Source: Rhodothermia bacterium
Lineage (GTDB): Bacteria; Bacteroidota; Rhodothermia; Rhodothermales; UBA2364
NCBI GenBank assembly: GCA_017303715.1
Contig: JAFLBZ010000020.1
Location: forward strand, 1 to 64,000
Reading direction: 5' to 3'
DNA: 64,000 nt
In this document: positions 6,301 to 52,792 of the stretch, in pieces
How the letters are laid out: every line of letters starts with the position of its first letter
How positions within the stretch are numbered: the stretch's first letter is position 1
The notes under the pieces: generated by a model
Told to the model about the DNA's origin: nothing
The model's input: the letters and a program-made list of their open reading frames with translations, nothing else
The model's database searches: none
Position numbers and translations under genes: made by a program

Positions 6301-6785
6301 GCAGTGTCCCATTCCGTTTGTACAAAAAGTTTAGAGAAGGCGGGATGTCCCACGTCCCCCATTCTGGTGTTCAAAACCACTTCCGCGTAACTGGTAAGCC
6401 GGAGTGAACGCGGGGTATTGGTCTGGTTGGTTAGGGTAATGCGCCGGATTTCCACGTCCGAAGTTTCCGAAACAAAGACCTCCATAACGGACGCAATCCC
6501 ATTTTCAGTACGGGAAAACCGCACCATCCCGCCTTCCGCTACAACCTCATAGTGTTCTGGTGTGGTGCGCAAAGGTTGAAATCCCAACGACCAAGCGTCT
6601 TGGGAAGCCATGTCCTGAAGGTAGAAAAAATACCCCTCTGCATCGCGCGTGGGGTCTGGATACCAGCGTGTAAGTGCCAGCGACTTGTGTGAGGTGAAAC
6701 CACCACCGGATGAAGACAGAAATACAGAAAGTTGTCCGTTGGAACAAGTAAACGTATCAAACGGAAAGCGTAGGTTCGTTTCCAA
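3315..6785 (-). CDS. GH94 phosphorylase, likely 1,2-beta-oligoglucan phosphorylase
   Basis: This is a large (1156 aa) GH94 protein without a signal peptide. The N-terminal half has the RITLTNQTNTPRSLRLTSYAE and HPAFSKLFVQTE segments, which are typical of the GH94 part of cyclic beta-1,2-glucan synthases and of 1,2-beta-oligoglucan phosphorylases (about 1100 aa), rather than of the shorter cellobiose phosphorylases (about 800 aa). The catalytic (alpha/alpha)6 barrel begins near residue 630. It contains GYRDQLQD (666-673) and the general-acid motif GDWNDGMNRVG (799-809, D800/D803). The reaction would be reversible phosphorolysis of sophoro-oligosaccharides to glucose 1-phosphate. Two GH144-type proteins in the same block support this substrate. 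Cellodextrin-type activity cannot be fully excluded. Confidence 0.88.
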   Translation of the reverse strand: METNLRFPFDTFTCSNGQLSVFLSSSGGGFTSHKSLALTRWYPDPTRDAEGYFFYLQDMASQDAWSLGFQPLRTTPEHYEVVAEGGMVRFSRTENGIASVMEVFVSETSDVEIRRITLTNQTNTPRSLRLTSYAEVVLNTRMGDVGHPAFSKLFVQTEWDTARGALLANRRLRSPSDDPGYMAHWIFEQRPDAWESDRMRFVGRGRTLENPLALGQALSCTTGNVLDAVFSLQKNLKLGAGESVTLHVALAFATNLETLNKWMAESIPKKTAKEPALFSKDELEMIAVFQLKSNKNSVINTAPKDVTTEYESLQHKEYLSEFNGYGGFSEDGKKYILHTHAGHKPPLPWVNVISNDQHGVIISESGACYSWSANSRENRLTPWSNDPVSDPFGEALYLKDRNNGHLFSPLPGLSTTNAAFRVEHGFGYSTFSSVQHEIAQDVTIFVPKSDPLKITKISLRNRSQTVKSLAFYAYHELVMGPYRHKTVPHIRTGGSENGGLWAENPENAEFSERRTFLHLAGAKSASVTTDRTAFLGRYGTMDVPLGLCAASLGNQIEQREETDPCLALETHIELQPGEEITFYVLFGQGENIQHAHQLMTHYALSMNCKRSLDEVRAFWEVLTAKIQIKTPDPALNLMGNGWLIYQNLSCRIMGRSAFYQSGGAFGYRDQLQDTGGMFYHTPERTRTQILLHAAHQFEEGDVLHWWHPPLSKGIRTRFSDDLLWLPYLTAFYVNSSGDWGLLDEVVGFKTAPHLKQGEDEVFVFAEDSTKKASLYEHAAITIDRSLTSGDHGLPLMGTGDWNDGMNRVGRLGKGESVWLGFFLYHILSDWILIAEKRQDYKRVERYRNYQKNLHNALNTAGWDGAWYRRAYYDNGSPLGATENDECQIDTIAQAWSVISGAAPKDRAESSLEAMMTHLVAENEGIIRLLTPAFDQTPHDPGYIKGYLPGVRENGGQYTHAALWAVKALAEAGKGTLATRLLRMISPVSHTNTPEKVARYQTEPYVVAADVYGVAPHVGRGGWTWYTGSAGWMYRVMFESILGVGVHENKFFTIKPCIPMHWTGFAVQYQWHDGQTIYEIVVNNPDQVETGIQSAILDGHPCTIIGATAHIPIVPDAQTHQVVIQMGKIVQTPHLPQNGQTIHPENAHTVRDKKTAV

Positions 6786-6808: not shown

Positions 6809-9800
6809 TTATTGGCGAATGACGACGGTTGCGGGTAAGGCATAAACTTTAATCTGGTGCGTATTTTCCACCAAACGTTTGCCGTTCACCCAAACTTCTC
6901 GAATGGGTTTAGGGTCGGGGATATGGATTTCCAAGCCGCCTTTGGGGATATTTAGGTTACCAGAAAGACGGAAAGTGGTGGTATTCTTTCGTGTGGATGC
7001 CGTAAAACTCAAGGCTCCCCACCACGTTCCAAGATTTTTGATGGCTACCCCGCTTCCCTTTTTAAGCCATGCGGGTAAAAGTCCCGCCCCAACCACCAAA
7101 GTTTCGTCATCTTCCCGCTCATAAGCGAAAAAGGATAAACTCGCACGGATAAAGTCTGATCCGACCCAAGTATGGGGCATATCGCCGATAAATTTCGGGG
7201 TTTTCGGATCATGCCAGATCACCTCGGCCCAATGTCGCCACACTGATGGGCGTTGATGGCTGAAGAAGAAGTGGCTCATGGCGTGGGCGCGGTCTTTCCA
7301 ACCAAGGCGAAGGAGAGCGCCGACGGTACGCCATTCGTAAGGTGTATAGTTTTCCCATGGTTTTGCACCAGATTTGCGGTTTTCAGCAAACTGCCAATAG
7401 CGTTCAAAGGTTTTTTCGAGCGCACCATTGGGAAAACGGGCCATCTCCTCGGCTGGGGTAATGCCGACAGTTGTGGAGGTGGGGTCAAAATCACCCAATT
7501 CAACACATCCGGGCAGGTAGTCTATTTGGTGAAGTGCCATTGTAGCACGGATTGCCGCATGAACATCTTGAGTAAAAACTTCCCTAAATTGGGTAAAAGT
7601 CGCTGCTGTTTGCTGTTCTCCGAGGGCTTCGGCCAAATAAACCGCATCTTTATAGCCACGAATGGCGAAAAAATAGTCCCAGAACGAATGGCGCGGATGA
7701 TCGGAATATCCTTCGTGGCTGATGGATTCGGGCAGGAGACCAAAGTACGGTTTCTTTTCAGCGGTCTGGTATTCTGGTGTCCGCCGTTGGTGCCGCAATT
7801 CCTCCATATAGCTTACGGCCAATTTCACCTTGGGCCAGACCTTTCGTAGCGTCTCAAGATCGTGTGTAAACCTGAAATATTCCGCAACGAGATAAATAAA
7901 TTGGCCATGACTATCGTTTTCCGGAACCGGATCTGCACCTCGCGCATCCACACAGCAAGGTACTTTCCCATTGTCAAAGAGATAGTTTGCATACCACAAA
8001 AGATAATCACGTACTGTATCGGCGTGTCCCAGGCGCAACAAAGCCGCCGAAGTCAGCGATCCATCCCGTATCCAACTCCGTTCATAACTACGCGAACCGG
8101 GTTGTATGGCATTTTGATCTTGGTTGACCAAAATATACCCAAGGTTTGCCTTAATTGACTGGGTTAGGGCTTCTTCTCCCGGAACCACAAGGTCAAAGCG
8201 CTCCGTTAAGTTTTGCCATTCAGCACGAGCTTGTTCAAGTGTGCCTTTTTGGTTTCCGTAGAACAAGGTCACGGTTTTGGACTGGCCAGCTTCCAATCGG
8301 AATCTAAAGCGCATGGCACCGGATGCAAAGCCGAGAGAATCGGTTGTGGTTTGGGTAATTGGATAAGTTCTATTTGCCATTTGGGTCATCAAATCACCTT
8401 CTTCTATACGTGTTGTCCACACCTGATCAGGCATAGGTTGCGTGGAGAAAACGTTTTGGTTTACTGCAAAGGGTTTGACCAAAGAAAGGGTCTTGATAGG
8501 TGCAAAACCACCGGGGGTATTCAAGAATTGAGATGTTGGATTAACCTGAAAAGGGCGAAGCGCAAGGAATAGATGGCCATTTTTTCGTGTTTTCCCTTGA
8601 TTTTGCAGGTGATACCGCACGGCAAAGCCCCCATTTACTGCCCAAGCCGTGATTTTCAGCACTACGGCTCCCATTTTTCGGGTGACATTAGGAATGGGCA
8701 AATAGCCTTTTTCGAGGGAAGGTTCGTGTGTGGCCTCTGCCCATGTCCAAAGTTTGTTGTCCATCCAGACGAAGGGTTCAAAGGTAGGGCCACCTTTTTC
8801 CAATTCCACCGCACCATGTTCCCCCATTAGACCTTCGTTGGCGTGGTGCGGCGTGCCAAAAACCGTCCAATAGGTGAGTTCTTTGGAGAGATATTGTGGG
8901 TAATGTCCTTTGGGCGCAGCGGCTGCAAGATGCTCAAAAAATGCAGAAGGCGAGGACGAGAATGTAAGCGGCTCTATTTGAAGTTGCGACAAGGCACATT
9001 CGGACAAACAGGTTAGGCGTAAAAAACGGGCTTCTGTTTCGGGCAGATACAAGGCGTCGTAGCCGCCATCGCCCTTTTGGATGTCTATTTGTTTCTGCCA
9101 ATATTGCCCATCATCGGAAGTCATTATATGGTATTGTTGTCCACCTTTTTTCCAGTTAAGGGTTATCCCGCCAAATTCCCGGAACCGTTCAAAATCCATG
9201 GTAAGTGATTGTGGTTTGGAAGGATCGGGTTCCCAAACGCTGGCTTGGCTTAGCAGACCATTTACTTTTCCAGAAGTCGTTGTTATTACAGGTATTTGTG
9301 TATAAGGTATATCGGGCGGCCTCGGCTGAATTCGGATGTCATCCAACCAAATGGTTCCCTTCCCTCCTTTCTCGGCAACGATGGTAAACTCAAAAGCAGT
9401 TAGTTTTTCCAAAGGCCGTTTGGGTTCTGGCCCCCAAGCAAAACTGATTTTCCGGCGCTTAATGCGTTGTTCAGTCCATTTCTGAGGCATTTTAAACGAG
9501 GGTTGAACAAGCCACCAGATATTGCCTTCTTGTTGGAGTTTAATTTCTAACTTATTTACGGGCGACTCGCCGCGCAATCGGTAGTTCAGTACAAAATTTT
9601 CCGGTAAAGCCACCAGAACGGGCTTTACAGCCGCTGCCCAGCCGCCTTTGCCATTAAAATTATAGTCTAAACGGATGGCGGGGCCATTCTCCCCTTGTTC
9701 TTGGGAAATCTTCAAATCCACGCCCTCGGTTGGGGAAGATTGCCATTTATCGGCCTGTGAACCGTCTTCTACGATTAGCACATCCGATTGTGCGAACACA

Positions 9801-9850
9801 TAAGGGCTTAAAACAAACCCCATCAAGCACCATAAAGCCTTTATTTTCAT
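6809..9850 (-). CDS. Secreted (alpha/alpha)6-barrel glycosidase-like protein with N-terminal binding domains
   Basis: The protein has 1013 aa and a signal peptide at 1-20. Residues about 25-175 form a carbohydrate-binding-like beta-sandwich ending in GTIWLDDIRI. Residues about 190-295 look like an F5/8 (discoidin) domain. Then comes a beta-rich linker region, and residues about 555-910 form a helical barrel with RSWIRDG (591-597), ENDSHGQF (644-651) and ESISHEGYSDHPRHSFWD (708-725). The WIRDG and acidic motifs resemble GH15/GH63-type barrels, but I cannot place it in a numbered family. No lipobox is seen, so it is probably periplasmic. It starts with an ATGA overlap with the permease gene upstream and is followed by the GH94 gene after 23 bp. 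Its substrate is therefore probably a beta-1,2-gluco-oligosaccharide or a decorated form. Confidence 0.75.
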   Translation of the reverse strand: MKIKALWCLMGFVLSPYVFAQSDVLIVEDGSQADKWQSSPTEGVDLKISQEQGENGPAIRLDYNFNGKGGWAAAVKPVLVALPENFVLNYRLRGESPVNKLEIKLQQEGNIWWLVQPSFKMPQKWTEQRIKRRKISFAWGPEPKRPLEKLTAFEFTIVAEKGGKGTIWLDDIRIQPRPPDIPYTQIPVITTTSGKVNGLLSQASVWEPDPSKPQSLTMDFERFREFGGITLNWKKGGQQYHIMTSDDGQYWQKQIDIQKGDGGYDALYLPETEARFLRLTCLSECALSQLQIEPLTFSSSPSAFFEHLAAAAPKGHYPQYLSKELTYWTVFGTPHHANEGLMGEHGAVELEKGGPTFEPFVWMDNKLWTWAEATHEPSLEKGYLPIPNVTRKMGAVVLKITAWAVNGGFAVRYHLQNQGKTRKNGHLFLALRPFQVNPTSQFLNTPGGFAPIKTLSLVKPFAVNQNVFSTQPMPDQVWTTRIEEGDLMTQMANRTYPITQTTTDSLGFASGAMRFRFRLEAGQSKTVTLFYGNQKGTLEQARAEWQNLTERFDLVVPGEEALTQSIKANLGYILVNQDQNAIQPGSRSYERSWIRDGSLTSAALLRLGHADTVRDYLLWYANYLFDNGKVPCCVDARGADPVPENDSHGQFIYLVAEYFRFTHDLETLRKVWPKVKLAVSYMEELRHQRRTPEYQTAEKKPYFGLLPESISHEGYSDHPRHSFWDYFFAIRGYKDAVYLAEALGEQQTAATFTQFREVFTQDVHAAIRATMALHQIDYLPGCVELGDFDPTSTTVGITPAEEMARFPNGALEKTFERYWQFAENRKSGAKPWENYTPYEWRTVGALLRLGWKDRAHAMSHFFFSHQRPSVWRHWAEVIWHDPKTPKFIGDMPHTWVGSDFIRASLSFFAYEREDDETLVVGAGLLPAWLKKGSGVAIKNLGTWWGALSFTASTRKNTTTFRLSGNLNIPKGGLEIHIPDPKPIREVWVNGKRLVENTHQIKVYALPATVVIRQ

Positions 9851-10668
9851 CCTTTTACACCTCCCATCATAATACCTTTAATGTAATGCTTTTGTAAGAC
9901 CAAGAATACCATAAGGACAGGTAAAACGGTCATCACCGAACCCGCCATCATCATTTCGTTGTCCTGAACATGTTCTCGTGAAAGTGCCGCCAAAGCTACT
10001 GGAAGCGTATAATTCCGGTCGTCGGTCATTAAAATGAGGGGCCACATAAAATCATTCCAGGTGCCCATAAACGTAAAAAGTGCTAAGGTCACTAAAATGG
10101 GACGTAAAAGCGGTAAGATGACCGACCAAAACGTGCGAAATTCCCCTGCTCCGTCCATTCTTGCGGCTTCTATAAGCTCATTTGGAACCGATAGGGCGTA
10201 TTGTCGGATGAGAAAGATGCCAAAAATACTGGCCAATCCGGGAATCATGACCCCCAAATAGGTGTTCACCAAACCCATGTATTTCATCATTAAAAACAGC
10301 GGAAGCATAGCTACCTGTGCCGGAATAACCAATGCGCCCATAAGGGTTTTAAAGATGCGCTCTTTACCCGGAATGGGTAATTTTGCAAACGCATAACCTG
10401 CCATGGCATTCAATAGCAGTGAAAACAGGGTGATAGAAGTGGCTAACAGGAAACTATTCAGAAAATACCGCCCCATTTCCATCCGCTCAAAAAGGGTTTG
10501 GTATTGCTCAAGCGTTGGTGAACTGGGTACGAGTGGAGGCGGATATGTGCCAGCTGCACCCGTTTGCATGAACGAAACGGAGACCATCCAAACCAATGGA
10601 AAGGCAGTGATGAGTGCAACTATCCACAAACTGCCATTGACCAAAAAAGAAGTAAATCGCTGACTCAT
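9847..10668 (-). CDS. Sugar ABC transporter permease, MalG type
   Basis: This is a 273-aa inner-membrane permease with six predicted membrane segments. The ATG at 10668 was chosen because MSQRFTSFLVNGSLWIVALITA starts directly before the first membrane helix, whereas the longer reading frame adds a polar stretch overlapping the upstream gene. The EAA loop that contacts the ATPase is EAARMDGAGEFRTFWSVILP. The C-terminus (YIKGIMMGGVKG) is characteristic of MalG-like permeases. It partners the MalF-type permease 20 bp upstream and the binding lipoprotein before that. No ATPase gene is nearby, so a shared MsmK/UgpC-type ATPase elsewhere is presumably used. The inferred substrate is a beta-1,2-gluco-oligosaccharide. 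Confidence 0.93.
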   Translation of the reverse strand: MSQRFTSFLVNGSLWIVALITAFPLVWMVSVSFMQTGAAGTYPPPLVPSSPTLEQYQTLFERMEMGRYFLNSFLLATSITLFSLLLNAMAGYAFAKLPIPGKERIFKTLMGALVIPAQVAMLPLFLMMKYMGLVNTYLGVMIPGLASIFGIFLIRQYALSVPNELIEAARMDGAGEFRTFWSVILPLLRPILVTLALFTFMGTWNDFMWPLILMTDDRNYTLPVALAALSREHVQDNEMMMAGSVMTVLPVLMVFLVLQKHYIKGIMMGGVKG

Positions 10669-10688
10669 AAGCTTTTTTTTGGGATGGT

Positions 10689-11588
10689 TTAAGCCGTTGC
10701 ATCCGCTTTTTGTAGGCGCAACTGAACGAGGGTTGCGACCAACATGATCGCAAACAGTACAAAGGCGACAGCGGCGGCATAACCCAAATTCCACCACTTA
10801 AAACCTTGTTCGTACATGAGATACACAATACTCACCGTGCTTTGCAGTGGGCCGCCCAAAGTCATCACATACGGCTCGGCAAACAATTGAAAGTACCCGA
10901 TCATGGTCATCAGACCAACAAACAAAAAAGTAGGGGCGAGCATAGGAACCGTAACATGCCAAAACTGTTGCCAAGCGTTAGCACCATCTATTCGCGCCGA
11001 TTCATAAAGCTCGTCGGGGATGTTTTGAAGTCCCGCAATGAAAATCACCATATTGTATCCAAAACCTTTCCAAACGGCCATCAGGATGATGGCGGGCATC
11101 GCCCAAACGGGGTCGCCGAGCCAATCCACCGGATCAATCCCCAAAAATTGGAGGATGTAATTCAAAAAACCGTATTTGGTGTGGTATAGGTAGCGCCAAA
11201 CAACGGCAACGGCAACAATGGTGGTGACGACTGGGGCAAAGAATATGGTTCTGAATAGGGCCTTAAACCTTACCAATTTGGACTGAAGGAGCAATGCGGT
11301 TCCCAAGGATACCGCTACCGAAAGCGGCCCGCCCACCAAAACAAAATAGAAGGTATTCCATAACGCCTTCCAAAAGTCTTCGGAAACAAAAAGCTCCGTG
11401 TAGTTCCGAAGTCCCACCACCCGAAGATGATTGGGGTTTGCTAATGCGTAGATGTCGAAATCGGTGAAGCTCAGTAAAAACGCCGCCAATACGGGTACAA
11501 AAAAGAATACCACGATCAGCAGAAGCGCGGGAGCGGCAAAAAACCATGCGGCACGAACGGTTCCACGTGGGAGGGTGTATTGGTTCAT
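10689..11588 (-). CDS. Sugar ABC transporter permease, MalF type
   Basis: This is a 299-aa inner-membrane permease. The start at 11588 gives MNQYTLPRGTVRAAWFFAAPALLLI, a normal MalF/UgpA-type N-terminus, and overlaps the stop of the binding-protein gene by an ATGA, a hallmark of coupled translation. The EAA loop is ELYESARIDGANAWQQFWHV. GGPLQSTVSIVYLMYEQGF and the last helix match the family. It forms the transmembrane channel with the MalG-type partner just downstream. Confidence 0.93.
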   Translation of the reverse strand: MNQYTLPRGTVRAAWFFAAPALLLIVVFFFVPVLAAFLLSFTDFDIYALANPNHLRVVGLRNYTELFVSEDFWKALWNTFYFVLVGGPLSVAVSLGTALLLQSKLVRFKALFRTIFFAPVVTTIVAVAVVWRYLYHTKYGFLNYILQFLGIDPVDWLGDPVWAMPAIILMAVWKGFGYNMVIFIAGLQNIPDELYESARIDGANAWQQFWHVTVPMLAPTFLFVGLMTMIGYFQLFAEPYVMTLGGPLQSTVSIVYLMYEQGFKWWNLGYAAAVAFVLFAIMLVATLVQLRLQKADATA

Positions 11589-12853
11589 GGCGTGATTTTG
11601 TTTTGTGAGCGCATCCAACGGCGCTTTTCGAGAATGCGGTCGGTTGTGGCATCCAAGTCTCTTAGGGCGGCATCCATGCTTTTCATCCCGCTCAAGATCA
11701 CTTCGGTGGTTAGGCGGAGTTCCGTAGCAATCCGCTCCCATTCCGGTACTTTTGGGGTTGGCCGCGTAAATTGAAGCTGCTGTTGGAAAGCCTGCATATA
11801 GGGATCTATTGCCAACTTGGGGTCTTTCCATGCCGAATAACGCGGCGGCAAATCGCCCGTTAATTCGTTAAACCGTATTTGAACCTCTGGACGAGACAGG
11901 TATTCTAAAAAGGCCCACGCTTCTTGTTTGTGTTTTGAACTCTGGAAGATGACCAAACTGGAACCGCCAGCCATAGAATAGGCGGGTTTTCCGGCTTCCG
12001 GAGCAGGCATAGGAGCTGTTCCCCAAGCCGATTGCAGCGACTTAGGGAGACGTGTTTTGAACTCGCTGACGTTCCAAGGGCCGGTGATGTAGAACGAAAA
12101 ATAGCCCCGTTCAAATTCTTGCCAAACATTGGAGATTTCTTGATTCCCGACACTTGGAGAAAGTTTTTTTCGGAATAAGTCTAAATAAAAGCCATATGCT
12201 TTTTTAAAGTCCGCACTTTGGAAATTCCCCCGTGTGCCCTGCTCTCGGAGCATCTCACTTGGTTGTTGTAGGGCCAAAATGATGGGCGGCTCAAACTCAT
12301 TTAAAGGCAATAAAACGGCAAATTTATCCGGCCCCACCAATTGCTTAATCTTCATAAGGACGGTTTGCCACTCTTGCCAAGTGGTCGGCGGTTGCGAAAA
12401 GCCCGCCTTCTGAAGCAAATCTTTTCGGTAAAAAAGAAGCCGTGTATCCACATACCAAGGAATCCCATACGTCCGGTCTTCAAAAACATTCGAGGCCCAA
12501 ATACCAGAAAAATAATCATTCTCTTGAATAACCTTACTTCTGGAAACCCACGGCGAAAGGTCTTCGAGCGCACCAAGCACAGTAAATTCTGGCATCCACG
12601 TATTTCCCAACTGGCACAGATCGGGAAGGGATTCGCCCGCAAATCCGGTCAAGAGTTTCTCATGGGCGGCAGTCCAAGGCAAGGCTTGTACACGTACCTT
12701 GATGTTTGGATGGGTACGCTCAAATTCTGGAACCAATTCTCCGAGGACTTCGCCTTCCTTTCCCATTGCCCAAATCCGAATTTCCGTTCTGGAATCCGTC
12801 TGGGTGGTACATCCGGCCCAAAAAGCCAGTATGAGGAAGAAGAAGCGGGTCAT
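11585..12853 (-). CDS. ABC sugar-binding lipoprotein (extracellular solute-binding family 1)
   Basis: A binding protein of the MalE/UgpB type (422 aa). I prefer the ATG at 12853 (MTRFFFLILAFWAGC) over 12877, because it begins the signal peptide directly and leaves an 8-bp gap after the GH144 gene instead of an overlap. The cysteine in FWAGC is the likely lipid-anchored residue 15. Family features include IRIWAMGKEGEVL at the mature N-terminus, GIPWYVDTRLLFYRKDLL, and GGSSLVIFQSSKHKQEAWAFLEYL near the C-terminus. It delivers oligosaccharides to the two permeases. Specificity for sophoro-oligosaccharides is inferred from context only. Confidence 0.9.
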   Translation of the reverse strand: MTRFFFLILAFWAGCTTQTDSRTEIRIWAMGKEGEVLGELVPEFERTHPNIKVRVQALPWTAAHEKLLTGFAGESLPDLCQLGNTWMPEFTVLGALEDLSPWVSRSKVIQENDYFSGIWASNVFEDRTYGIPWYVDTRLLFYRKDLLQKAGFSQPPTTWQEWQTVLMKIKQLVGPDKFAVLLPLNEFEPPIILALQQPSEMLREQGTRGNFQSADFKKAYGFYLDLFRKKLSPSVGNQEISNVWQEFERGYFSFYITGPWNVSEFKTRLPKSLQSAWGTAPMPAPEAGKPAYSMAGGSSLVIFQSSKHKQEAWAFLEYLSRPEVQIRFNELTGDLPPRYSAWKDPKLAIDPYMQAFQQQLQFTRPTPKVPEWERIATELRLTTEVILSGMKSMDAALRDLDATTDRILEKRRWMRSQNKITP

Positions 12854-12860
12854 GTTGGGT

Positions 12861-14954
12861 TTATGGTTTTTGTTCAATCCACTGTTTTAGGGCTGCCATT
12901 ACACGCTCAAAAAACAAAGCGTGGGCGCTATCAGTAAGGTGTATCTGGTCTCCGGCATCGTATTTGGGATTAATACGCCCGTCTTCGAGGGCTATTTCGC
13001 TCCAAAAATCAATGACAAAGTTTCCGTAAAGGGCTTTTAAACGGTCTCGGACTTGCATGAGTTCAGCGCGTTTTTCGCCGCTCAGGTTTCGTGGCTGGGT
13101 GGTGGTGATCCAAACCGGAATCCCTTTTTCTTGTGCGGGTGCGATGATGGTGGCAAAATTCTGAATTTGCTCCTCGAAGCCATATCCGGCGGTGGTGTCA
13201 TTGGAAGGCAAGTTAATGATAATGGCCTCTGGATTGAGGCTCAAGGCTTTAGTGATATTCCGCTCTACATCTGGCTGTGGCCGGCTCGCCATCATCGGAC
13301 TGCCGGTTGGCAACAAGTGAAAAGTGGAATAGGCGCTCCGTGCGATGTTAAAAACATGGATTTTTCCGGTGGGTTCAAGCACGCCCCGAAGCCGATTTAC
13401 CCAAGTGTTTTCCCAAACTTTCGGCCCAACGCCTTCAGCAGTCGAGGAACCTAATACCACAATGCGTTTGTATTTCGGCGAGGTCTCTACGTCGGCCATG
13501 CGTTTTGGCATCCAAGTACTATAGATTTTCGCAGGTTGAGGCGCATCTGACAACCACCCGCCCGTAAATCCTGCCCGCTCAAGTCCTTTCCGGATGTATG
13601 GATTTTTCTGAAGGGTTTTCCAAATCAAGCCAGTACGATAATTTTCGATCATCACCAAAATGGGGCCTTGGTCTATGCCCAGATAATCGGTATCAAACCA
13701 GCCTTTTTCTGGAATAACGCGGCCATGCTGTGGCTTTATATCGTTAAACGTAAATGAAGGATTAAACGCATCTAAAAAGCCGTATTTTCCATAAAGCGGC
13801 TCGCCATAACGGGAGGCCATTGCTTTCAGAGCCGGAATAGTGATTTCTGGTGCAAATGGAACGGATCCGCCAACGGCAGTAGGTGAGAGTGTTCCATCAT
13901 CCAAGACGTATTCGTTACTGGCCCCGCGTGGTGCATACGTTTGGAAACGCCTCATTTTGCCATTGAATTCCCGCTCAATATCCAAAGGCCCGTCACAGGC
14001 GGTTAGTCCCCAAATCTCGGCGCTATAGTCTTTCCACCCATTCGGATTTGCAATGGCATAGGCATGTTGGCTTAGGGTGGCACGACGCGAGTTCTCGAAG
14101 TAATCTATGCCTTTGGAGCGCATAAACGCATCTTGGATTCCTTTCATTGGGAGGTACATCTGGGTATATTGATGCCCAAACAGCGGCGAAAAGTTAACGT
14201 GTTCCTGCCCAAAGTATGATCCCCAACGATAGGTTGCGGTATAAACCTGCCAAGCGTCGTCTCTAAAGGGGAACGTGGGCGATCCCAAGCCCAAGATATA
14301 AGGCATCATGGCCTCGTCGTAGCCCTTGTAGTCGTGCGTGTGTTTTCCGGATTCTGGATACCAGCCCATTGCCATCAGCCCACCGCGAACGTGCATCCAA
14401 TCCCACTCCACCCGTCGGTAGAGGGAGTCCGCATAAGCGCGAATATCCCGCTCTTGGGCGTCATTCTGGTCATAATAACTTTGGGTAAACAAGACGCCCG
14501 CCATTAGCCAAGCGGTATCTATACTGGAAAGTTCGACATTTCGGAATCGTTCTCCCGTTTTCATGTCGAGGAAGTGGTAATAGAAACCTTTATAGCCGGT
14601 TTGCTTCAGTCCTGCAGGGCCTTGCGGAGATTTCCACAAGAATCTAAGCGTGGTTAATGTCCTATCAACGGCTTGTTTGCGTGAAATCCAACCGCGTTCG
14701 GCACCAATAGGATACGCGGTAAGGCCAAATCCAATGGCTGCTACGCTCGAAAAGGACTCTGTAGGCCAACGATCTGGAACGAGACCGTTTTCTGGATTGG
14801 TGGTTTCCCAAAACCAGTTAAAGGTTCGTTGTTGTACGTCGTTTAAAAAAGCCTCATCTCCATTTTGAGGTTTTTGGACGTTTGGTGGTGGCTTGGGCGC
14901 ACAGCCAGTCCAAAGGAGGAGAAGCAAAAGTAATCCACTTCTTAGCGTCATCAT
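12861..14954 (-). CDS. GH144-type endo-beta-1,2-glucanase fused to an SGNH hydrolase, lipoprotein
   Basis: The protein has 697 aa. Residues 1-18 are a lipoprotein signal (LLLLWTGC, Cys18). Residues about 34-465 are a glucoamylase-like (alpha/alpha)6 domain of the type found in GH144 endo-beta-1,2-glucanases, with FNWFWETTNPENGLVPDR (45-62), YKGFYYHFLD (121-130), ELSSIDTAWLMAG (141-153), YPESGK (199-204) and GIDQGPILVMIENYRTGLIW (427-446). Residues about 495-690 are an SGNH/GDSL hydrolase: block I GSS with Ser504, block III-like SNDT with Asn585, and the block V pair Asp669/His672 in DQIH. The second domain suggests removal of an ester substituent from the glucan, which is inference. It lies 11 bp after the other GH144 gene and 8 bp before the binding-protein gene. 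Confidence 0.88.
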   Translation of the reverse strand: MMTLRSGLLLLLLLWTGCAPKPPPNVQKPQNGDEAFLNDVQQRTFNWFWETTNPENGLVPDRWPTESFSSVAAIGFGLTAYPIGAERGWISRKQAVDRTLTTLRFLWKSPQGPAGLKQTGYKGFYYHFLDMKTGERFRNVELSSIDTAWLMAGVLFTQSYYDQNDAQERDIRAYADSLYRRVEWDWMHVRGGLMAMGWYPESGKHTHDYKGYDEAMMPYILGLGSPTFPFRDDAWQVYTATYRWGSYFGQEHVNFSPLFGHQYTQMYLPMKGIQDAFMRSKGIDYFENSRRATLSQHAYAIANPNGWKDYSAEIWGLTACDGPLDIEREFNGKMRRFQTYAPRGASNEYVLDDGTLSPTAVGGSVPFAPEITIPALKAMASRYGEPLYGKYGFLDAFNPSFTFNDIKPQHGRVIPEKGWFDTDYLGIDQGPILVMIENYRTGLIWKTLQKNPYIRKGLERAGFTGGWLSDAPQPAKIYSTWMPKRMADVETSPKYKRIVVLGSSTAEGVGPKVWENTWVNRLRGVLEPTGKIHVFNIARSAYSTFHLLPTGSPMMASRPQPDVERNITKALSLNPEAIIINLPSNDTTAGYGFEEQIQNFATIIAPAQEKGIPVWITTTQPRNLSGEKRAELMQVRDRLKALYGNFVIDFWSEIALEDGRINPKYDAGDQIHLTDSAHALFFERVMAALKQWIEQKP

Positions 14955-14965: not shown

Positions 14966-16843
14966 TTAAGGACTTTCTTTATGTCTAATAACTTTAATCA
15001 CCTTCACGGTTTCATTCAGGGTAATCCGTACAAAATACGCCCCGTCCGGCCATTCCCCACCCGCTAATCGCCATGATTGCAGACCACTTTCGAGAAACTT
15101 CTGTTCTTGATGTTTGGCACGGCCTAAAACATCAAAGACTTCTAAGGTGGCAAGTCCACTGTGCGGAAACGCCGTATCTATTTGTAGTTCGTCGCTAAAG
15201 GGATTGGGATAACTTTGGATCAAGGTGGACGAATTTGGAGGAATCTCGGCCTCATTTGCTACACCGGGGCCTTTGAATCCAGCCCGCCGAAGCCCTCTTT
15301 GTATGACCTCGCTTTTCATCATGTATTTCCAGATGAGACCCGTTCGGTGGTTTTCGATCATCAGCAAAATAGGGCCTTGATCAATGCCGATATAGTCGGT
15401 CGCGAACCAGTTTTTGGTGGGATTAAAAGCATCTTTCAGGCCATATGCGCCCCATAAATTCAAGCAATAACGGTTATACATCTCCCGAAGTGCCGCCAAC
15501 GATTCGTTCGGGGTGAAGGGAAAAGATCCACCGGGAGCTGTTGGGTTTAGCGTCCCATCATCGCCCCAATCGGGAGGAGCGCCACGTGCTTTATACCCGC
15601 CGGGCACATCCGAAGCCGTAATCCCCCAGAGGTTTGGGCCATAATCGGTAAAACCTTTCGGATTCGCGATACAATAGGCCCGTTGAGCAAGGGTAGCTCT
15701 TTTGGCGTTTTCAAAATAATCGGAACCACGTGCATTCATATAGCTATCTTTAATCCCCCTAAAGTCAATAAAAATATGGGAATATTGGTGTCCGAAGAGT
15801 GGTGGAAAGATCACAAAAGACTGCCCATAATGGCTTTGCCACGTATAAGTGGACGTCCAAGCGCTCCAAGACGTTGCCGGAAGCGGGTACGTAGGCGAAC
15901 CCAGCCCAATGATGTACAAGATGGATGCTTCGCTAAACCCAGCCCAATCGTAGGGCAAAAGGCCAGATTCGGGCTTCCAGCCATGAGAAACACGTGGCGC
16001 ACGTGGTGAAGCCCATTTCCAATCCGCTCGGTCATTGATCTTTGTAGCCAAGTCTCGGATCTCGGTTTCGGCAGCATCGTTGCCAGAAAAGTATTCCTTT
16101 GCGAACAAAATGCCGCCCAGCAAAAGTGCAGTGTCTATCGTAGAAAGTTCGCTACTCCATTCGCGATATCCGCCTGTCATGTTCAAGAAGTGGTAGTAAA
16201 ACCCTTTATATCCGGTACTATTTGAAGGCTCATCGGTTGGGACATCTGCAAAAAAGCGCAAGGTGTTTAAGACCCGCTGGCGTCCGGCTTCACGGGTGAT
16301 CCATCCGCGCTCAATGCCCACAGCAATGGCAGGTAAACCAAATCCCACACTGGCTGTACTGGCGTGTGATCCACGTTGGCTCCGGTCTCGGATTAAGCCT
16401 TTTTCGGGATTGGCCTCGTTCCAAAAGAAGTCGAACGCGGTTTGTTGCATCAAATTCAGAAATTCCTCATCGCTCAATTCTTGCGGCGTTACTGCTATTG
16501 GTGTTGATGGCTCCCCCTCGATAAAGCTTGCATTAACTGCCGAGATCTTATAATAATAGGTTTTGTTGTTTTGGAGGCTGTTTTCCACCCAATAGGGCTG
16601 CGTTTGCATCACGGTTGTTCTGGAGGTAAATGGGCCTGTTGCATTGGTGGACCAATAGATATAATAGCCAAAAATGCCTCTCTCGGCGGCTTCCCAACGG
16701 ATAATGGCTGTTTTGTCACCGATTCGCGTTGTTGGGTTGATGGGTGGTAAAGGCCCTGTTTGTGCATATAGAAGCGCTCGTGTATAGCCTAAGCAAGACA
16801 AAACAACCATCAAGAATAGGTATCTGGCACCATTTCTTTTCAT
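14966..16843 (-). CDS. GH144-type endo-beta-1,2-glucanase, T9SS-secreted
   Basis: The protein has 625 aa with an N-terminal signal peptide. A fibronectin type III domain spans about 33-118. The GH144-type domain spans about 125-525, with FDFFWNEANPEKGLIRDRS (137-155), YKGFYYHFL (212-220), ELSTIDTALLLGG (232-244), KPESG (290-294) and GIDQGPILLMIENHRTGLIW (486-505). A T9SS type A sorting domain runs from about 540 (SYPNPFSDELQI) to the end, so the enzyme should be exported across the outer membrane and held at the surface. It shares the catalytic domain with the next gene but not the SGNH module. Together they would supply surface cleavage of long or cyclic beta-1,2-glucan. Confidence 0.9.
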   Translation of the reverse strand: MKRNGARYLFLMVVLSCLGYTRALLYAQTGPLPPINPTTRIGDKTAIIRWEAAERGIFGYYIYWSTNATGPFTSRTTVMQTQPYWVENSLQNNKTYYYKISAVNASFIEGEPSTPIAVTPQELSDEEFLNLMQQTAFDFFWNEANPEKGLIRDRSQRGSHASTASVGFGLPAIAVGIERGWITREAGRQRVLNTLRFFADVPTDEPSNSTGYKGFYYHFLNMTGGYREWSSELSTIDTALLLGGILFAKEYFSGNDAAETEIRDLATKINDRADWKWASPRAPRVSHGWKPESGLLPYDWAGFSEASILYIIGLGSPTYPLPATSWSAWTSTYTWQSHYGQSFVIFPPLFGHQYSHIFIDFRGIKDSYMNARGSDYFENAKRATLAQRAYCIANPKGFTDYGPNLWGITASDVPGGYKARGAPPDWGDDGTLNPTAPGGSFPFTPNESLAALREMYNRYCLNLWGAYGLKDAFNPTKNWFATDYIGIDQGPILLMIENHRTGLIWKYMMKSEVIQRGLRRAGFKGPGVANEAEIPPNSSTLIQSYPNPFSDELQIDTAFPHSGLATLEVFDVLGRAKHQEQKFLESGLQSWRLAGGEWPDGAYFVRITLNETVKVIKVIRHKESP

Positions 16844-16887: not shown

Positions 16888-17889
16888 CTAAAACTCAAAG
16901 GCAAATCCAAACCGTTGGCTACTCCCAAGCCGCCCAAAGTCTGCCCAGCCATAATCAAAGCGGAAGCGATATTGGTCAATCTCATAATGAATGCCCGCAC
17001 CCAAAGTAAGCCCTGTTTCGTGGTCTTGTTGGAACAGGTGTTGGTATCCACCACGAAGAGAAAATGTCTCGAACAAGGTGATTTCCGTCCCAAAACTCAC
17101 GCTTTCGGTGTTGTCGCTTGGGTGATAGGCATTAACGGCAAAGATGGCTTGGGCTTTTTTGCCTAATGAAACGGGATAATCCATCCCAACCCGAAAAAGT
17201 ACAGGCAACTGGTGAGCTTCCGTCACCAATGCGGCGGGGAGACTGGAGTTGTCTCCGTATTTGTCTGGATTTGCATCAAACCGGACGCGCAAGTCTTTGC
17301 CATCAAACTTGCCTTTTGTCCCAAAATTGGACAGGCTCGCTCCTAATTGCGCCCCAAACGGCAATTTATACATCACCCCAAAATCAAGCGCACCTGCTTG
17401 TAAGGCGGAGTTCCAGATGCGCTCGGTCACATATTTGAGGTTTACCCCTGCCGAAAACCGATCGCTTAGTTTCCGGCTGTAGCCCACACTAAGCGCCAAG
17501 TCTTTCACCTGATATTGTTCGCCCGTCCCCAAAGGTTGTTCTACGGTTCTGACGGCAATTTCGCCAGAGTTTAAGGACGTAACACTTACCGAAAGGGCGT
17601 CTGTTTGCCCCAAGCGTAGGTCAGCAGTTGCAAATTGGTGGGAAATTCCAGCCAACCAAGCACCGTGCGAGAACTGAACTGCCGTCCGAGGTTCCCAAGC
17701 CGGCGCTGCTGGATTAAAATAGCCTGATGACGGATCGCCATACGTCGTTACCGAGGCATTTGCCATGCCCATTGCACGGGCACTTGGTTCGATAAGTAAA
17801 AACTGACCGATGGTCGTTCCTGTTTTGCTCTGCGCAAGGGCAAAAGACAGATTCAGGAAAAGTGAAGCTAAAAGTACAAGCGCCTTCAT
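16888..17889 (-). CDS. PorV/PorQ-family outer-membrane barrel protein
   Basis: The protein has 333 aa. The ATG at 17889 starts a good signal peptide (MKALVLLASLFLNLSFALAQ), and two upstream ATGs only add polar residues. The mature N-terminus has GQFLLIEPSARAMGMANAS followed by YFNPAAPAW, the family hallmark of PorV/PorQ (FadL-like barrels). The chain continues in amphipathic strands and ends with aromatic FGFAFEF. PorV-type proteins shuttle T9SS cargo to the surface, and several T9SS-tailed products are encoded next to it. It is probably a locus-specific paralogue rather than the core PorV. Confidence 0.88.
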   Translation of the reverse strand: MKALVLLASLFLNLSFALAQSKTGTTIGQFLLIEPSARAMGMANASVTTYGDPSSGYFNPAAPAWEPRTAVQFSHGAWLAGISHQFATADLRLGQTDALSVSVTSLNSGEIAVRTVEQPLGTGEQYQVKDLALSVGYSRKLSDRFSAGVNLKYVTERIWNSALQAGALDFGVMYKLPFGAQLGASLSNFGTKGKFDGKDLRVRFDANPDKYGDNSSLPAALVTEAHQLPVLFRVGMDYPVSLGKKAQAIFAVNAYHPSDNTESVSFGTEITLFETFSLRGGYQHLFQQDHETGLTLGAGIHYEIDQYRFRFDYGWADFGRLGSSQRFGFAFEF

Positions 17890-17950
17890 ATGTACATGGG
17901 TCATGGCGGTCGGTGACAGCACCAAGCGGCCTCTTGAATAAATCTATTTC

Positions 17951-20900
17951 TTACTTAATAATTGCAAACTTATCAACAAAAGTTCCTAAGTCCCCAGCAT
18001 CCACATGGTAGAGGTAGAGACCCGGGGCAACCTCCAGATTGTCCTTCGACCTTAAATCCCAAGGAACCATTCCAGTATTTAGGCCGTCATGTTCGAGCAT
18101 TTTCACCAGTTCGCCTTTGATGGTATATATCCGAATAATGGCACTTTGTGGGATATTCCGAAACTCCATCCGGCGCACACCACGTCCAGAAACCGCAAAC
18201 CGTTCTGGCTCAAAACTCGCCGAAGCCACATATGGATTCGGAACCACATATGGTTTCTCTGCATCGAATTGTGACTTTGCATCCGTTGCGTTGATTTTTT
18301 CGCCATCTACTTTGAACTCAAAGACATCTCCTCTTTGGAAAGGCTTGGACAGCACCAAATGATACACGTCTCCGCTAGCTGGCGGTTTGGAGGTTGGCGA
18401 GCCGCTAGCCAAACGTATGTCCCACGTGGCCAATGGGGTTCTAGGCGCTTCGGGTAAATAGGTAAGCACCTCGATAAATTCGGTGGCCTCGTCTAATGTA
18501 CCCGAATTGTTTACATCACGGAACCGGAACTTCAATTTTTGGCCTTTATCGGTTCTAACCGTAAACTTGGCCACCCGTGCAGGCGCGCCAATAGCAGCCA
18601 ATGACGTGTCCTGCGGCGTATCCGCGAAGGAAATCACCAAGTTATCGGGGAAACCAGTGCGACGACGGTTGATGTGGAACGAACTCGCATACCGTGCGGT
18701 GATTTGGGCAGTCGTTGTGCTTCCGGTTTTAAAACCAGAGGCTACCGGATCGGGCGAAAGGATTTTAGGCGTCTTTACCACGGGCAATAATCCATGTCCT
18801 GTAACGCCCGAAAGTCCTCCGTCCAACTCCTCACTTCCAGAGAAGACCAACTCGCCCGTATCCAAATCGGTCATGCTGTAATTCGTTGCGCGAACACTAT
18901 CGGCAGGAGCTGCAAAAGTGATTTGGTATTTATGTCCATCCTTCACCGCTTTGGGATTCATAATGCGGATATCTACACTCCCCGTACCATCTCCGGATTT
19001 ATGTACCAAGGAGCCGGATTGAATTTGGGCGCGAATATAGCCCGGAACGGGTTTGTTTGGGCGGACTTCCACCACGTTGGTGGGTAGGATCGTCCCGCCG
19101 CGAGGCGTCCGAGAGACCGAAATGGCATTTTCGGACGGGAAAAACTGAAATTCTTCCGAGCCATTGTCATATGCTGTAACGGCATAATAATAGGTTTGGC
19201 CATTTACAACGGTGGTATCCACAAAACTGTGCATCAGGCCGGAGTCCTCGCCAAGCCAATACTGCACCCCTTGAACGGCGATGTTTGAAAACCCACGAAC
19301 CTCATTTTTAAGGTCGAATTGTGCAATTGGTTTTCCATTGCCAAACGGCCCAGTTCCGCGTCCGGTAGAAATGACCTGCGCATCTAAGAAGTTAGGATCG
19401 GTAGAACGGTAAACACGGTAGCCCTCAAAGTCGTAAAGATTGGTTACAGGGTCTGGGGTTTTCTCCGAGACATTGTCCCAAACGAGGGTCACTTTTTTGT
19501 CTTCGGCAAAGGCTTGTACCACCGGTTTAGGTGGCGGGGTTGCAAATTGGTAATTGGCGTCATAAATCCTTGAGACCACTTTTACGTTGTCCTTCAACTC
19601 TTCCAAATCAGCGCCATAGGCCAAGGCAAGGCTAAAACGTTCCGTAGCGCCCGCTTTTAGCTTAAAGGTTCCAGATGCAAAGACAAACCCAATGTTATAA
19701 TTTGCGGCTAAGGGCGTATCGAACCGCTTTTTGGGATCTGCGTTGGTAAATTGTTCCCATAAACGGCGAGGCCACTCCTTCCCATCGTCATAAAAAACAA
19801 TATTATCGGTCTCGGTACTCCCATTTCCAGCACCTGCCTTAATCCGGTTAAATTTAAATCCGGTTAGACCAATTTGGTCGGACTCATTTACGTCGGTTTT
19901 GTCAAAATTCGGTTCGCCGTCAGTGGGCATTCCGTCATTTTCGCCCGTATCATTGGTCCCAAAGACGCCATCTGCGCCCGTATCATGGAACTCCGGAATC
20001 CAGTCCAAGTCTTCGTCACCTGTCCACCAGATCCCAAGCCGATAGGCCGGACGTTGTGTGAGTGGTGCAACCTCTTTTTCGAACTTGGTAAGGTCATATT
20101 TGGATTGCAGATAAGCCAAAATAGCGGATTGGCCTTCGATTTTCTGACCTCGCCCCCCATCGCGTTGTTCATCCACCATGCCGTCATCGTCGTTGTCTAA
20201 ACCATCGAATTTATTCCCCGGCGTTTCCAAATACGCATAGCCCAAATAGCCCGTTTTGGCACAACTGCTGCTTAGGCTCACGCCTGTCCCATTTTTATCC
20301 CATGTATAAACCAAGTCCTCGCCCAAATCGGTAGAATAAAAAGCATTGTCGTCGTCGGACTCATAGATACCGTCGCAAGAAAGTTGCGAGCCGCCCACGC
20401 CGGAGTCCATGTACAAACCGAAGATTATATTGTCGTCGTAGTCGGTTGTGGACTCATTGGTGATGTCGTATTGCCAGAAGATTACATTTTGTGCCTGCGG
20501 ATTGGCCCATTGGAAGCCCCGAACCGAAATCTTGAGGCCCAACCCACGCCTTGTATTGTCTCGTGAATCTGGATAAAAATCCCAACCATCGTAGAAGTTA
20601 TCGTCCATAACGGAATAACTTTCTTGGTCGGCATTGGGTCTTTTACCAAAATAACCGTTCCAGTCTCCAGCCCAACCCGGATCATCGGTATCGTTTAATT
20701 TGTCCACCCATTTTTCCGGCCACGTTCGCGGGTCGTTACTCATGGCAATGGAACGCCCTTTGTTGATGTTGGGGTCTTCTTGGAAGTATCCCGGTCGTGG
20801 CTCAAAACGCATCACCTTTCCCGTAACGGGACTAATTCCTTGGCGCTCCCGATAGCCCGTTTCCATGATGTAGGCATTGGAGCCACTCCGTTGTTTCACC

Positions 20901-21175
20901 TTCGCCAAAACGAATGGCGAAACCCCATCCGAGTAATTCACACCTGTGCCCTTGGGTACTTCCGAGGAATGAAAGACGGAGAGATCGGGATTTCCCTGAA
21001 AATCGCCCACCATCCCAAAGTTATAGAAAAGGGTTCTAATGCGGTTGGCATCGTGTGTCCCTGTGCGCTCGGCATCAATCCGGCTTCGGAGTTCGGGCGG
21101 AACCACTTGTGCAAAACCCACATTCATCCATCCGAAGAAGAACCCCAGCAAAAAAAGTTTGCGGAACATATTCAT
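17951..21175 (-). CDS. Large secreted T9SS surface protein with FN3 domain
   Basis: The protein has 1074 aa and a signal peptide (MNMFRKLFLLGFFFGWMNVGFAQ). The N-terminal 500 residues are acidic and aromatic-rich (for example GDWNGYFGKRP and DDNFYDGWDFYPDSRDN) and include a calcium-loop-like motif DGLDNDDDGMVDE. A fibronectin type III domain follows (KKVTLVWDN, FEGYRVYRS). The last about 95 residues (VVPNPYVAS to FVDKFAIIK) are a T9SS-type sorting domain. I recognise the architecture as one that accompanies TonB receptors and PorV-like barrels in Rhodothermota/Ignavibacteria-type genomes, but its biochemical role is unknown. It sits 41 bp after the TonB receptor, the place where a SusD would be expected, so I infer glycan capture at the surface. 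Confidence 0.75.
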   Translation of the reverse strand: MNMFRKLFLLGFFFGWMNVGFAQVVPPELRSRIDAERTGTHDANRIRTLFYNFGMVGDFQGNPDLSVFHSSEVPKGTGVNYSDGVSPFVLAKVKQRSGSNAYIMETGYRERQGISPVTGKVMRFEPRPGYFQEDPNINKGRSIAMSNDPRTWPEKWVDKLNDTDDPGWAGDWNGYFGKRPNADQESYSVMDDNFYDGWDFYPDSRDNTRRGLGLKISVRGFQWANPQAQNVIFWQYDITNESTTDYDDNIIFGLYMDSGVGGSQLSCDGIYESDDDNAFYSTDLGEDLVYTWDKNGTGVSLSSSCAKTGYLGYAYLETPGNKFDGLDNDDDGMVDEQRDGGRGQKIEGQSAILAYLQSKYDLTKFEKEVAPLTQRPAYRLGIWWTGDEDLDWIPEFHDTGADGVFGTNDTGENDGMPTDGEPNFDKTDVNESDQIGLTGFKFNRIKAGAGNGSTETDNIVFYDDGKEWPRRLWEQFTNADPKKRFDTPLAANYNIGFVFASGTFKLKAGATERFSLALAYGADLEELKDNVKVVSRIYDANYQFATPPPKPVVQAFAEDKKVTLVWDNVSEKTPDPVTNLYDFEGYRVYRSTDPNFLDAQVISTGRGTGPFGNGKPIAQFDLKNEVRGFSNIAVQGVQYWLGEDSGLMHSFVDTTVVNGQTYYYAVTAYDNGSEEFQFFPSENAISVSRTPRGGTILPTNVVEVRPNKPVPGYIRAQIQSGSLVHKSGDGTGSVDIRIMNPKAVKDGHKYQITFAAPADSVRATNYSMTDLDTGELVFSGSEELDGGLSGVTGHGLLPVVKTPKILSPDPVASGFKTGSTTTAQITARYASSFHINRRRTGFPDNLVISFADTPQDTSLAAIGAPARVAKFTVRTDKGQKLKFRFRDVNNSGTLDEATEFIEVLTYLPEAPRTPLATWDIRLASGSPTSKPPASGDVYHLVLSKPFQRGDVFEFKVDGEKINATDAKSQFDAEKPYVVPNPYVASASFEPERFAVSGRGVRRMEFRNIPQSAIIRIYTIKGELVKMLEHDGLNTGMVPWDLRSKDNLEVAPGLYLYHVDAGDLGTFVDKFAIIK

Positions 21176-21216
21176 TTATAGCTTTAATTCAAAAAATACA
21201 AGACTTTAGCCCAAGA

Positions 21217-25963: not shown

Positions 25964-26965
25964 TTATTTTTGACCGCAGGACTGCCGGATCACAAGGGAG
26001 GTTGGGAACTTTTCCTGCCGACGGGTGTGGTCGTTTTCTTCTTGTATCGCCATAAGTAAACGCTCCATTGCACGTTGGCCCATCTCGAAAATGGGAACAT
26101 GCACCGAGGTTAAAGGGGGTTCTAAGTATTGACTTGTTGGGATATCGTCAAAGCCCACAATGGCAATATCTTCCGGAACCTTAAGCCCAAGGCCACGCAG
26201 AGCAGCCATTGCCCCGATGGCCATCCCATCGTTCATTGCAAAAATGGCGGTTGGGGGTTCTGGATGACGCATCAGGAACAAGGCTCCTTTATGGCCACTC
26301 GCTTCGTTAAAATCACCTTCGTACCGCAAAACAGGATCGGTTAATCCGGCATCTCGCAAGGCATCTTCATAGCCTCGATAACGTTCTTGGGCCTCATGGT
26401 TGTTGGCGGAACCGGTGATGATGCCAATCTTACGATGGCCAAGACGAGTCAGATGGCGCACAATGGAATATGACCCGCCGTAGTTATCCACGTTGATGGA
26501 GTCGAAGGCATCTCCTTCCACATAACAATTCAGGAGAACAACAGGAAGGGAAGCGGGGAGATTGGTTTGTAAAGAGGCGGCATCAATATCCGGCGACATC
26601 ACCACCAAGCCATCAACACGGCCTTGCATGGCTTGGATCGCTCGTACAATTTCCTTGCGTTCATTATGCGAACTTGACACCAAAAGATGATATCCTCGAT
26701 CTTGGGCTGTTCGGTCTAATCCGCGCAAAATTTCAGAGTAGAAACCGCCATACATGTCGGGCAAAACCACGCCCAAGGTATAGGTTTTTTTGGTCACCAA
26801 ACTCCGGGCTGCACCATTCGAGACAAAATTGAGTTTACGAACCGCAAGTTGAATCACTTCCCGCTTCTGACGGCTCACTGGCCCGCCCGTCAACCACCGA
26901 GAGACCGTTGAGACCGATACCCCAGATTCTTTTGCAACGTCTTTTATTGTAGCAGCCATAACCAT
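25964..26965 (-). CDS. LacI-family transcriptional regulator
   Basis: A standard LacI/GalR regulator (333 aa; the third residue Met at 26959 is an equally good start). The N-terminal helix-turn-helix is [19 protein letters not shown], followed by the hinge helix region [20 protein letters not shown]. The periplasmic-binding-protein-like sensor domain fills the rest ([40 protein letters not shown]). It is the first gene of the 25-kb minus-strand block, with palindromic operators directly upstream, so autoregulation and control of the whole locus by a beta-glucan-derived inducer are likely. The inducer cannot be identified from sequence. Confidence 0.95.
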
Positions 26966-52771: not shown

Positions 52772-52792
52772 CATCCCCAATTGTTGTCTGAT

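What the first reader, a model, noticed from the sequence alone, without database searches (positions are those of the whole stretch)
12861..14954. GH144 endo-glucanase fused to an SGNH esterase-like domain
The C-terminal about 200 residues carry SGNH blocks with Ser504, Asn585 and Asp669/His672, in one frame with the GH144 domain. The sister gene next door lacks this domain. Natural cyclic and osmoregulated beta-1,2-glucans carry substituents such as succinyl groups. A lipid-anchored enzyme that both cuts the backbone and removes an ester would explain the fusion.
Basis: partly seen in the sequence, partly recalled or inferred. Interest (0 to 1): 0.75.

Follow-up and report, generated by a model that had tools for sequence, protein, structure and literature searches.

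The report
Glucan-cutting enzyme fused to an esterase
A bacterium carries one lipid-anchored protein that joins an enzyme cutting beta-1,2-glucan (a bacterial sugar polymer often decorated with ester groups) to a second, apparently intact esterase domain, and because the fusion is conserved in its relatives it gives a clear candidate for an enzyme that strips and cuts this polymer in one go; the esterase activity itself is untested.

Summary
Window 12861-14954 (minus strand) encodes a 697-residue lipoprotein-like protein: GH144 endo-beta-1,2-glucanase domain (about 33-470), a 20-residue variable linker, then an SGNH/GDSL (PF13472) domain (about 490-690). The closest solved relative is the characterised GH144 enzyme XcSGL (E 7e-175), and its catalytic residues are present. 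Ser504, Asn585, Asp669 and His672 are present; the block-II glycine is Ala in this genus only. The fusion recurs in nine species of one bacterial order. It is under purifying selection, its SGNH domains form one clade, and inside that order this SGNH subfamily was never found without GH144. It sits in a conserved beta-1,2-glucan utilisation locus: T9SS-exported GH144, TonB receptor, sophorooligosaccharide-type binding protein and permeases, GH94 phosphorylase, GH1. Most likely a periplasm-facing bifunctional enzyme that removes O-acyl groups and cuts the chain before ABC import. Against: the same locus occurs in relatives without this domain, and the same SGNH subfamily elsewhere in the phylum has no GH144, so the domain is an accessory and its substrate is inferred. 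Substituent (succinyl or acetyl) unknown. A new domain combination of known kinds; no paper found describes it.

The parts
12861..14954 (-). Fusion gene: lipoprotein signal (residues 1-18, Cys18) + GH144 endo-beta-1,2-glucanase + linker + SGNH/GDSL hydrolase, 697 aa
13545..14858 (-). GH144 catalytic domain, residues about 33-470; general acid E214, probable base D146, clan residues F259 and Y340
   Evidence: alignment with XcSGL 8XUL and CpSGL 5GZH; residues; roles from PMC12102758
13485..13547 (-). Inter-domain linker, residues about 470-490; 33-67% identical between close relatives, dN/dS 0.43
12864..13487 (-). SGNH/GDSL (PF13472) domain, residues about 490-697; S504, A541 (block-II Gly position), N585, D669, H672
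14966..16843 (-). Sister GH144 with fn3 and T9SS C-terminal sorting domain, no SGNH; 12 bases upstream
11585..12877 (-). ABC solute-binding protein; best ligand-defined match Lin1841 (sophorooligosaccharide-binding), E 1.8e-70
10689..11831 (-). ABC sugar permease 1
9847..10797 (-). ABC sugar permease 2
6809..9850 (-). Uncharacterised discoidin protein with CBM11-like N-terminus and GH94/GH15-like catalytic region (low-confidence model)
3315..6785 (-). GH94 phosphorylase-like protein; [quoted passage not shown]
1926..3257 (-). GH1 beta-glucosidase
16888..17925 (-). PorV/PorQ-family outer-membrane protein
17951..21175 (-). 1074-aa protein, T9SS/PorZ-like only at its C-terminus, conserved between TonB receptor and PorV in relatives examined
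21217..23868 (-). TonB-dependent receptor
23984..25888 (-). CBM9 protein with T9SS tail
25964..26965 (-). LacI-family regulator

Best explanation
The gene encodes a lipid-anchored, probably periplasm-facing bifunctional enzyme of a beta-1,2-glucan utilisation locus. The N-terminal GH144 domain cuts beta-1,2-glucan internally by an inverting mechanism (general acid E214, base probably D146). The C-terminal SGNH domain uses Ser504-His672-Asp669, with Asn585 in the oxyanion hole, to hydrolyse O-acyl esters (succinyl or acetyl) on the same glucan or its fragments. Working order (inferred): the T9SS-exported sister GH144 trims the polymer outside; the TonB receptor takes fragments into the periplasm; the fusion protein removes acyl groups that would block subsites or import and cuts further; the Lin1841-like binding protein and permeases import bare sophorooligosaccharides; GH94 phosphorylase and GH1 finish them. 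Shown: domains, catalytic residues, conserved fusion, purifying selection, conserved locus. Inferred: esterase activity, its substrate, periplasmic location, order of steps.
For: GH144: E 7e-175 to characterised XcSGL, and catalytic residues aligned (PMC12102758). SGNH: PF13472 above cut-off over its full length; catalytic S, N and H invariant in 30 rows; the top 49 Foldseek matches of a weak model are SGNH hydrolases, including acetyl xylan esterases and CE2. Fusion in nine species of the order; the SGNH domains of the fusions form one clade, 98/91 support, 97% of bootstraps; purifying selection, dN/dS 0.08 in SGNH against 0.43 in the linker. Lipoprotein signals in the fusions whose N-terminus is readable. 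Locus: sophorooligosaccharide-type binding protein, Cgs-type GH94, GH1, conserved order TonB - 1074-aa - PorV - GH144(T9SS) - GH144(+/-SGNH) - SBP - permeases - GH94. Periplasmic glucans bear O-succinyl and O-acetyl groups (PMC4726272; PMC9558356).
Against: The SGNH domain is absent from syntenic loci of relatives G004, G012 and G044, with no relative of it close by; the only neighbouring SGNH found there is a TesA-like gene in G044. So the pathway runs without it. The GH144 domains of the fusions are not one clade (p-AU 0.010), which needs loss or transfer. The block-II glycine is Ala in this genus and its SGNH domain sits on a long branch. No SGNH relative of known function is close (best PDB E 3e-6). 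No experiment.
Confidence: 0.6

Rival explanations
1. The SGNH domain is an active esterase, but its natural substrate is not acylated beta-1,2-glucan. It serves another ester met in the same compartment, for example another acetylated polysaccharide, a lipid, or a sophoroside-type conjugate, and the fusion only shares regulation and export.
For: Outside the order the same subfamily occurs with Ig, PKD, CBM30/CBM11-like and T9SS modules and no GH144. Beta-1,2-glucan loci without it exist in sister families.
Against: Inside the order all ten genomes with this subfamily have it joined to GH144 (one damaged) and never alone. In the fusions with enough contig it lies in a beta-1,2-glucan locus.
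Confidence: 0.22
2. The SGNH domain is not a working enzyme here: a binding or structural module, or one drifting after loss of the block-II glycine.
For: Ala541 replaces the block-II glycine in this genus only, and the domain evolves faster than GH144 (77% against 89% identity to L030; long branch 0.74).
Against: Catalytic Ser, Asn, Asp and His all kept; dN/dS 0.08. The glycine acts through its backbone NH, which Ala can supply (general knowledge of SGNH enzymes).
Confidence: 0.1
3. The SGNH domain is an acyltransferase that adds or moves acyl groups on glucan fragments, as SGNH domains do in AT3-SGNH and PatB systems.
For: SGNH domains are known transferases in some systems (PMC9558356).
Against: No AT3 or MBOAT acyl-donor gene was recognised among the locus proteins that were scanned, and all named neighbours are degradative or uptake genes. 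No donor is evident for a lipoprotein.
Confidence: 0.05
4. Artefact: two genes joined by a missed stop or an assembly error.
For: None found; considered because the sister gene lacks the domain.
Against: Same single frame in nine species from separate assemblies.
Confidence: 0.01

Closest known systems
XcSGL (XCC2207, PDB 8XUL), GH144 endo-beta-1,2-glucanase of Xanthomonas campestris
   Same: GH144 domain, E 7e-175 over residues 23-475; same general acid and clan residues
   Different: No SGNH match beyond residue 475 (539-aa chain aligned to position 487 only)
Ignavibacterium album beta-1,2-glucan cluster (IALB_1177-1187; PMC8861115)
   Same: Two GH144 genes, Cgs-type GH94, Lin1841-type binding protein and a TonB-dependent transporter
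   Different: No esterase domain or gene is mentioned there; it has a GH35 glycosyltransferase
Streptomyces griseus SGR_2422-2427 cluster (PMC12369401)
   Same: Sophorooligosaccharide ABC transporter, GH1, endo-beta-1,2-glucanase, and a gene annotated as acetyl-esterase
   Different: The esterase is a separate gene without signal peptide, the glucanase is GH193, and no esterase function is tested
SGNH/GDSL hydrolases (PF13472): TesA, AlinE4, BF3764 (4ppy), acetyl xylan esterase AlAXEase, CE2
   Same: Fold of the weak model, blocks I, III and V
   Different: About 22% identity or less; block-II Gly is Ala in this genus; the native substrate of this subfamily is unknown
AT3-SGNH acyltransferases (OafB, OatA) and PatB
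   Same: SGNH domain acting on carbohydrate esters
   Different: Joined to or paired with a membrane acyl-transport protein; here joined to a glycanase

Membership tests
GH144 (clan GH-S) | Sequence relationship to characterised GH144 enzymes | tested here: met
   XcSGL E 7e-175; CpSGL 5GZH E 2e-41; PF10091 E 4e-76
GH144 (clan GH-S) | Conserved clan residues E239, F286, Y367 of XcSGL | tested here: met
   E214, F259, Y340 by alignment; residue roles from PMC12102758
GH144 (clan GH-S) | Acidic residue at the base position (E142 of CpSGL) | tested here: met
   D146 aligns with the Glu of the 5GZH motif DLVET
GH144 (clan GH-S) | Hydrolysis of beta-1,2-glucan, inverting | not testable with these tools
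   Needs purified enzyme
GDSL/SGNH hydrolase superfamily (PF13472) | Profile match over the curated cut-off | tested here: met
   47 bits against 32.9; all 8 representatives match PF13472
GDSL/SGNH hydrolase superfamily (PF13472) | Block I Ser, block III Asn, block V His (and Asp) | tested here: met
   S504, N585, H672, D669
Strict four-residue S-G-N-H signature | Block II Gly (the G of the tetrad) | tested here: not met
   Ala541 in this genus only; Gly in 26 of 30 rows and in all fusions outside the genus. So filed under the PF13472 superfamily, not claimed as a strict four-residue SGNH protein
GDSL/SGNH hydrolase superfamily (PF13472) | Three-layer alpha/beta/alpha SGNH fold | tested here: inconclusive
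   AF2 pLDDT 59, pTM 0.60 (2-row alignment), yet the top 49 PDB matches are SGNH hydrolases, TM-score up to 0.68
A CAZy carbohydrate esterase (CE) family | Sequence membership and carbohydrate O-deacylation | not tested
   No CAZy models at hand; only weak fold-level likeness to CE2 and acetyl xylan esterases
Bacterial lipoprotein | Hydrophobic signal ending in a lipobox Cys | tested here: met
   By eye: LLLLWTG-C18 (Trp at -3 is unusual); LLAG-C, VFAG-C, LLAA-C and AVAA-C in relatives. No predictor was run

The most novel reading that the evidence does not exclude
The C-terminal domain founds a new carbohydrate-esterase group specific for acylated beta-1,2-glucans (succinylated or acetylated periplasmic and cyclic glucans), and the fusion lets one lipoprotein de-acylate and cut these symbiosis- and virulence-related polymers on one chain.
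Probability: 0.4. Interest if true: 0.65.

Novelty: new variant of a known kind. Interest (0 to 1): 0.45.

Why it matters
Beta-1,2-glucans (periplasmic and cyclic glucans) are widespread bacterial products with roles in osmoregulation, symbiosis and virulence, and they often carry O-succinyl or O-acetyl groups. How scavengers get past these groups has not been worked out: no enzyme that removes them was found in the papers searched. A conserved fusion of an endo-beta-1,2-glucanase with an intact-looking SGNH hydrolase is a direct, cheap candidate to test, and would supply a tool for analysing native substituted glucans.

Tried and rejected
Considered re-filing the glucanase under the new families GH192-194, because its best PDB match XCC2207 comes from the paper that founded them; that paper classes XcSGL as GH144, so GH144 stands. 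Tested whether unfused relatives carry the esterase as a separate neighbour: no, apart from a TesA-like gene in G044 and an unrelated 480-aa GDSL protein in G003. Scan of viral contigs for the SGNH subfamily: nothing. Plasmid records: 96 with GH144, none covering 80% of the fusion. NCBIfam: no model for the fusion or for the window's SGNH domain; one relative hits the TesA model weakly. Literature: no paper holds both GH144 and SGNH, nor GH144, carbohydrate esterase and GDSL together.

Full report
WHAT WAS CHECKED. The gene is on the minus strand, 12861-14954, 697 codons without an internal stop. Pfam gives PF10091 (GH144) at residues 207-452 (E 4e-76) and PF13472 (GDSL-like lipase/acylhydrolase) at 500-680 over its whole length (E 5.5e-12; 47 bits against a curated cut-off of 32.9). 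With the domain alone PF13472 scores 50.4 bits, and all eight representatives of the domain family match it.

GH144 HALF. The best solved relative is XcSGL (XCC2207, PDB 8XUL), aligned over residues 23-475 with E 7e-175. The paper that describes it, PMC12102758, calls it a GH144 beta-1,2-glucanase. Its clan-defining residues E239 (general acid), F286 and Y367 correspond to E214, F259 and Y340 here, and the probable base (E142 in CpSGL) to D146. The crystal sequence has Gln at 239, in line with the E239Q mutant used there.

SGNH HALF. Across 30 rows of the subfamily (29 distinct; L003 and L031 are the same species) S504, N585 and H672 are invariant and D669 is present in 29. The block-II glycine (five residues after the block-II Asn, as in TesA; general knowledge) is Gly in 26 rows and Ala541 in the four rows of this genus. 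A glycine in block II serves through its backbone NH, so Ala may be tolerated, but this is the weakest point of the active site. An AlphaFold2 model from only two sequences is poor (pLDDT 59, pTM 0.60), yet the top 49 PDB matches by Foldseek are SGNH hydrolases or designs on such scaffolds (BF3764, EstA, TesA, AlinE4, BT0569, CE2 and acetyl xylan esterases). Profile search of PDB sequences also finds only GDSL/SGNH enzymes or designs on such scaffolds. The identity is therefore secure by profile and fold type. The exact geometry is not.

THE FUSION IS CONSERVED. A whole-protein match was found in the same genus (G001, G002, 83%; L003, Bacteroidetes bacterium UBA2364, matches G001) and in G008, G017, G032, G039 and G046 (53-58%). 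A ninth species is G173. G003 carries only the two ends of the gene, with the middle missing. In a search of 114 genomes of the order, all ten with this SGNH subfamily have it joined to GH144, counting the damaged one. SGNH codons are under purifying selection: L003 against L030 gives dN/dS 0.081 for SGNH, 0.038 for GH144 and 0.425 for the linker (pairs with the window are near or past saturation at synonymous sites). The SGNH domains of the fusions form one clade (98/91; 97% of bootstraps), so the domain was most simply joined once. The GH144 halves do not form one clade (three changes; p-AU 0.010): unfused G012, G021, G030 and two Ignavibacteria sit among fused ones, which points to later loss or transfer.

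OUTSIDE THE ORDER. The same SGNH subfamily occurs in other classes of the phylum without GH144, in proteins with Ig, PKD, Kre9-like, CBM30-like and T9SS modules or alone. It is a general secreted module of this phylum that was recruited to GH144 in one order. Nothing found here tells the substrate of any member: no close solved relative and no specific NCBIfam model.

THE LOCUS. The genes from 25888 down to 1926 run in one direction: CBM9-T9SS protein, TonB receptor, 1074-aa protein, PorV-family protein, GH144-T9SS, GH144-SGNH, binding protein, two permeases, a discoidin protein, GH94, GH1; LacI regulator upstream. The binding protein's best ligand-defined match is Lin1841, the sophorooligosaccharide-binding protein (E 1.8e-70; function from PMC12369401). 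[quoted passage not shown] In the regions fetched, the order TonB, 1074-aa, PorV, GH144(T9SS), GH144(+/-SGNH), binding protein, permeases, GH94 is kept, wholly or in part, with or without the SGNH domain. PF10091 hits only these two genes in the genome.

LOCATION. The fusions whose N-terminus could be read begin with a hydrophobic signal and a lipobox-type Cys (Cys18 here). The sister GH144 has a T9SS sorting domain. I infer that the sister works outside and the fusion inside the outer membrane; no predictor or experiment was run.

MECHANISM. Inferred order: outside cutting, TonB uptake, periplasmic de-acylation with further cutting, ABC import, phosphorolysis and hydrolysis in the cytoplasm. 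De-acylation before ABC import is plausible because periplasmic glucans carry O-succinyl (most widespread) and O-acetyl groups (PMC4726272; PMC9558356). Nothing here shows which group is removed. A separate gene annotated as acetyl-esterase in the S. griseus beta-1,2-glucan cluster (SGR_2422, PMC12369401) is a faint parallel. Relatives with the same locus and no such domain show that it is optional, which fits a role in widening the range of usable (substituted) substrates, but equally allows an unrelated ester.

VERDICT. A real, conserved, well-placed fusion of two known domain families. The activity is a good guess, not a result. Interest 0.45.

Noticed in passing
6809-9850 (-): 1013-aa protein: CBM11-like N-terminus, F5/8 domain, then a GH94/GH15-like beta-sandwich plus alpha/alpha barrel (weak model) with no Pfam or NCBIfam family over cut-off for the catalytic part. 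Relatives lie beside GH144 in L025, 33 bases from GH144 on a Croceibacterium plasmid, and near it on a Xanthomonas sacchari plasmid. May be an uncharacterised beta-1,2-glucan-active enzyme family.
   Followed up: partly
16888-23868 (-): TonB receptor, 1074-aa protein with no Pfam family, and PorV-family protein stay together at 51-94% identity in glucan loci of this phylum and Ignavibacteria. No SusD was recognised: possibly a different outer-membrane uptake set.
   Followed up: partly
3315-6785 (-): 1156-aa GH94 protein with an extra N-terminal supersandwich domain (two PF06165 stretches, first at 15-250), resembling a piece of cyclic glucan synthase without its synthase part.
   Followed up: no
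L091 4780-5107 (G003 contig C289): Remnant of the fusion gene: start of GH144 and end of SGNH with the middle missing; internal deletion or assembly error.
   Followed up: no
G010, G031, G039 and G046 GH144 paralogues: Five GH144 matches carry one in-frame TGA; may be alignment past the stop, damaged genes or recoding.
   Followed up: no
L065, L068, L070: Same SGNH subfamily in T9SS or PKD proteins, with CBM30-like regions or an added alpha/beta-hydrolase-like domain: a widespread secreted esterase-like subfamily of unknown substrate.
   Followed up: partly
52781-63919 (+): 3712-residue ORF with several carboxypeptidase-regulatory-like repeats in its C-terminal third.
   Followed up: no
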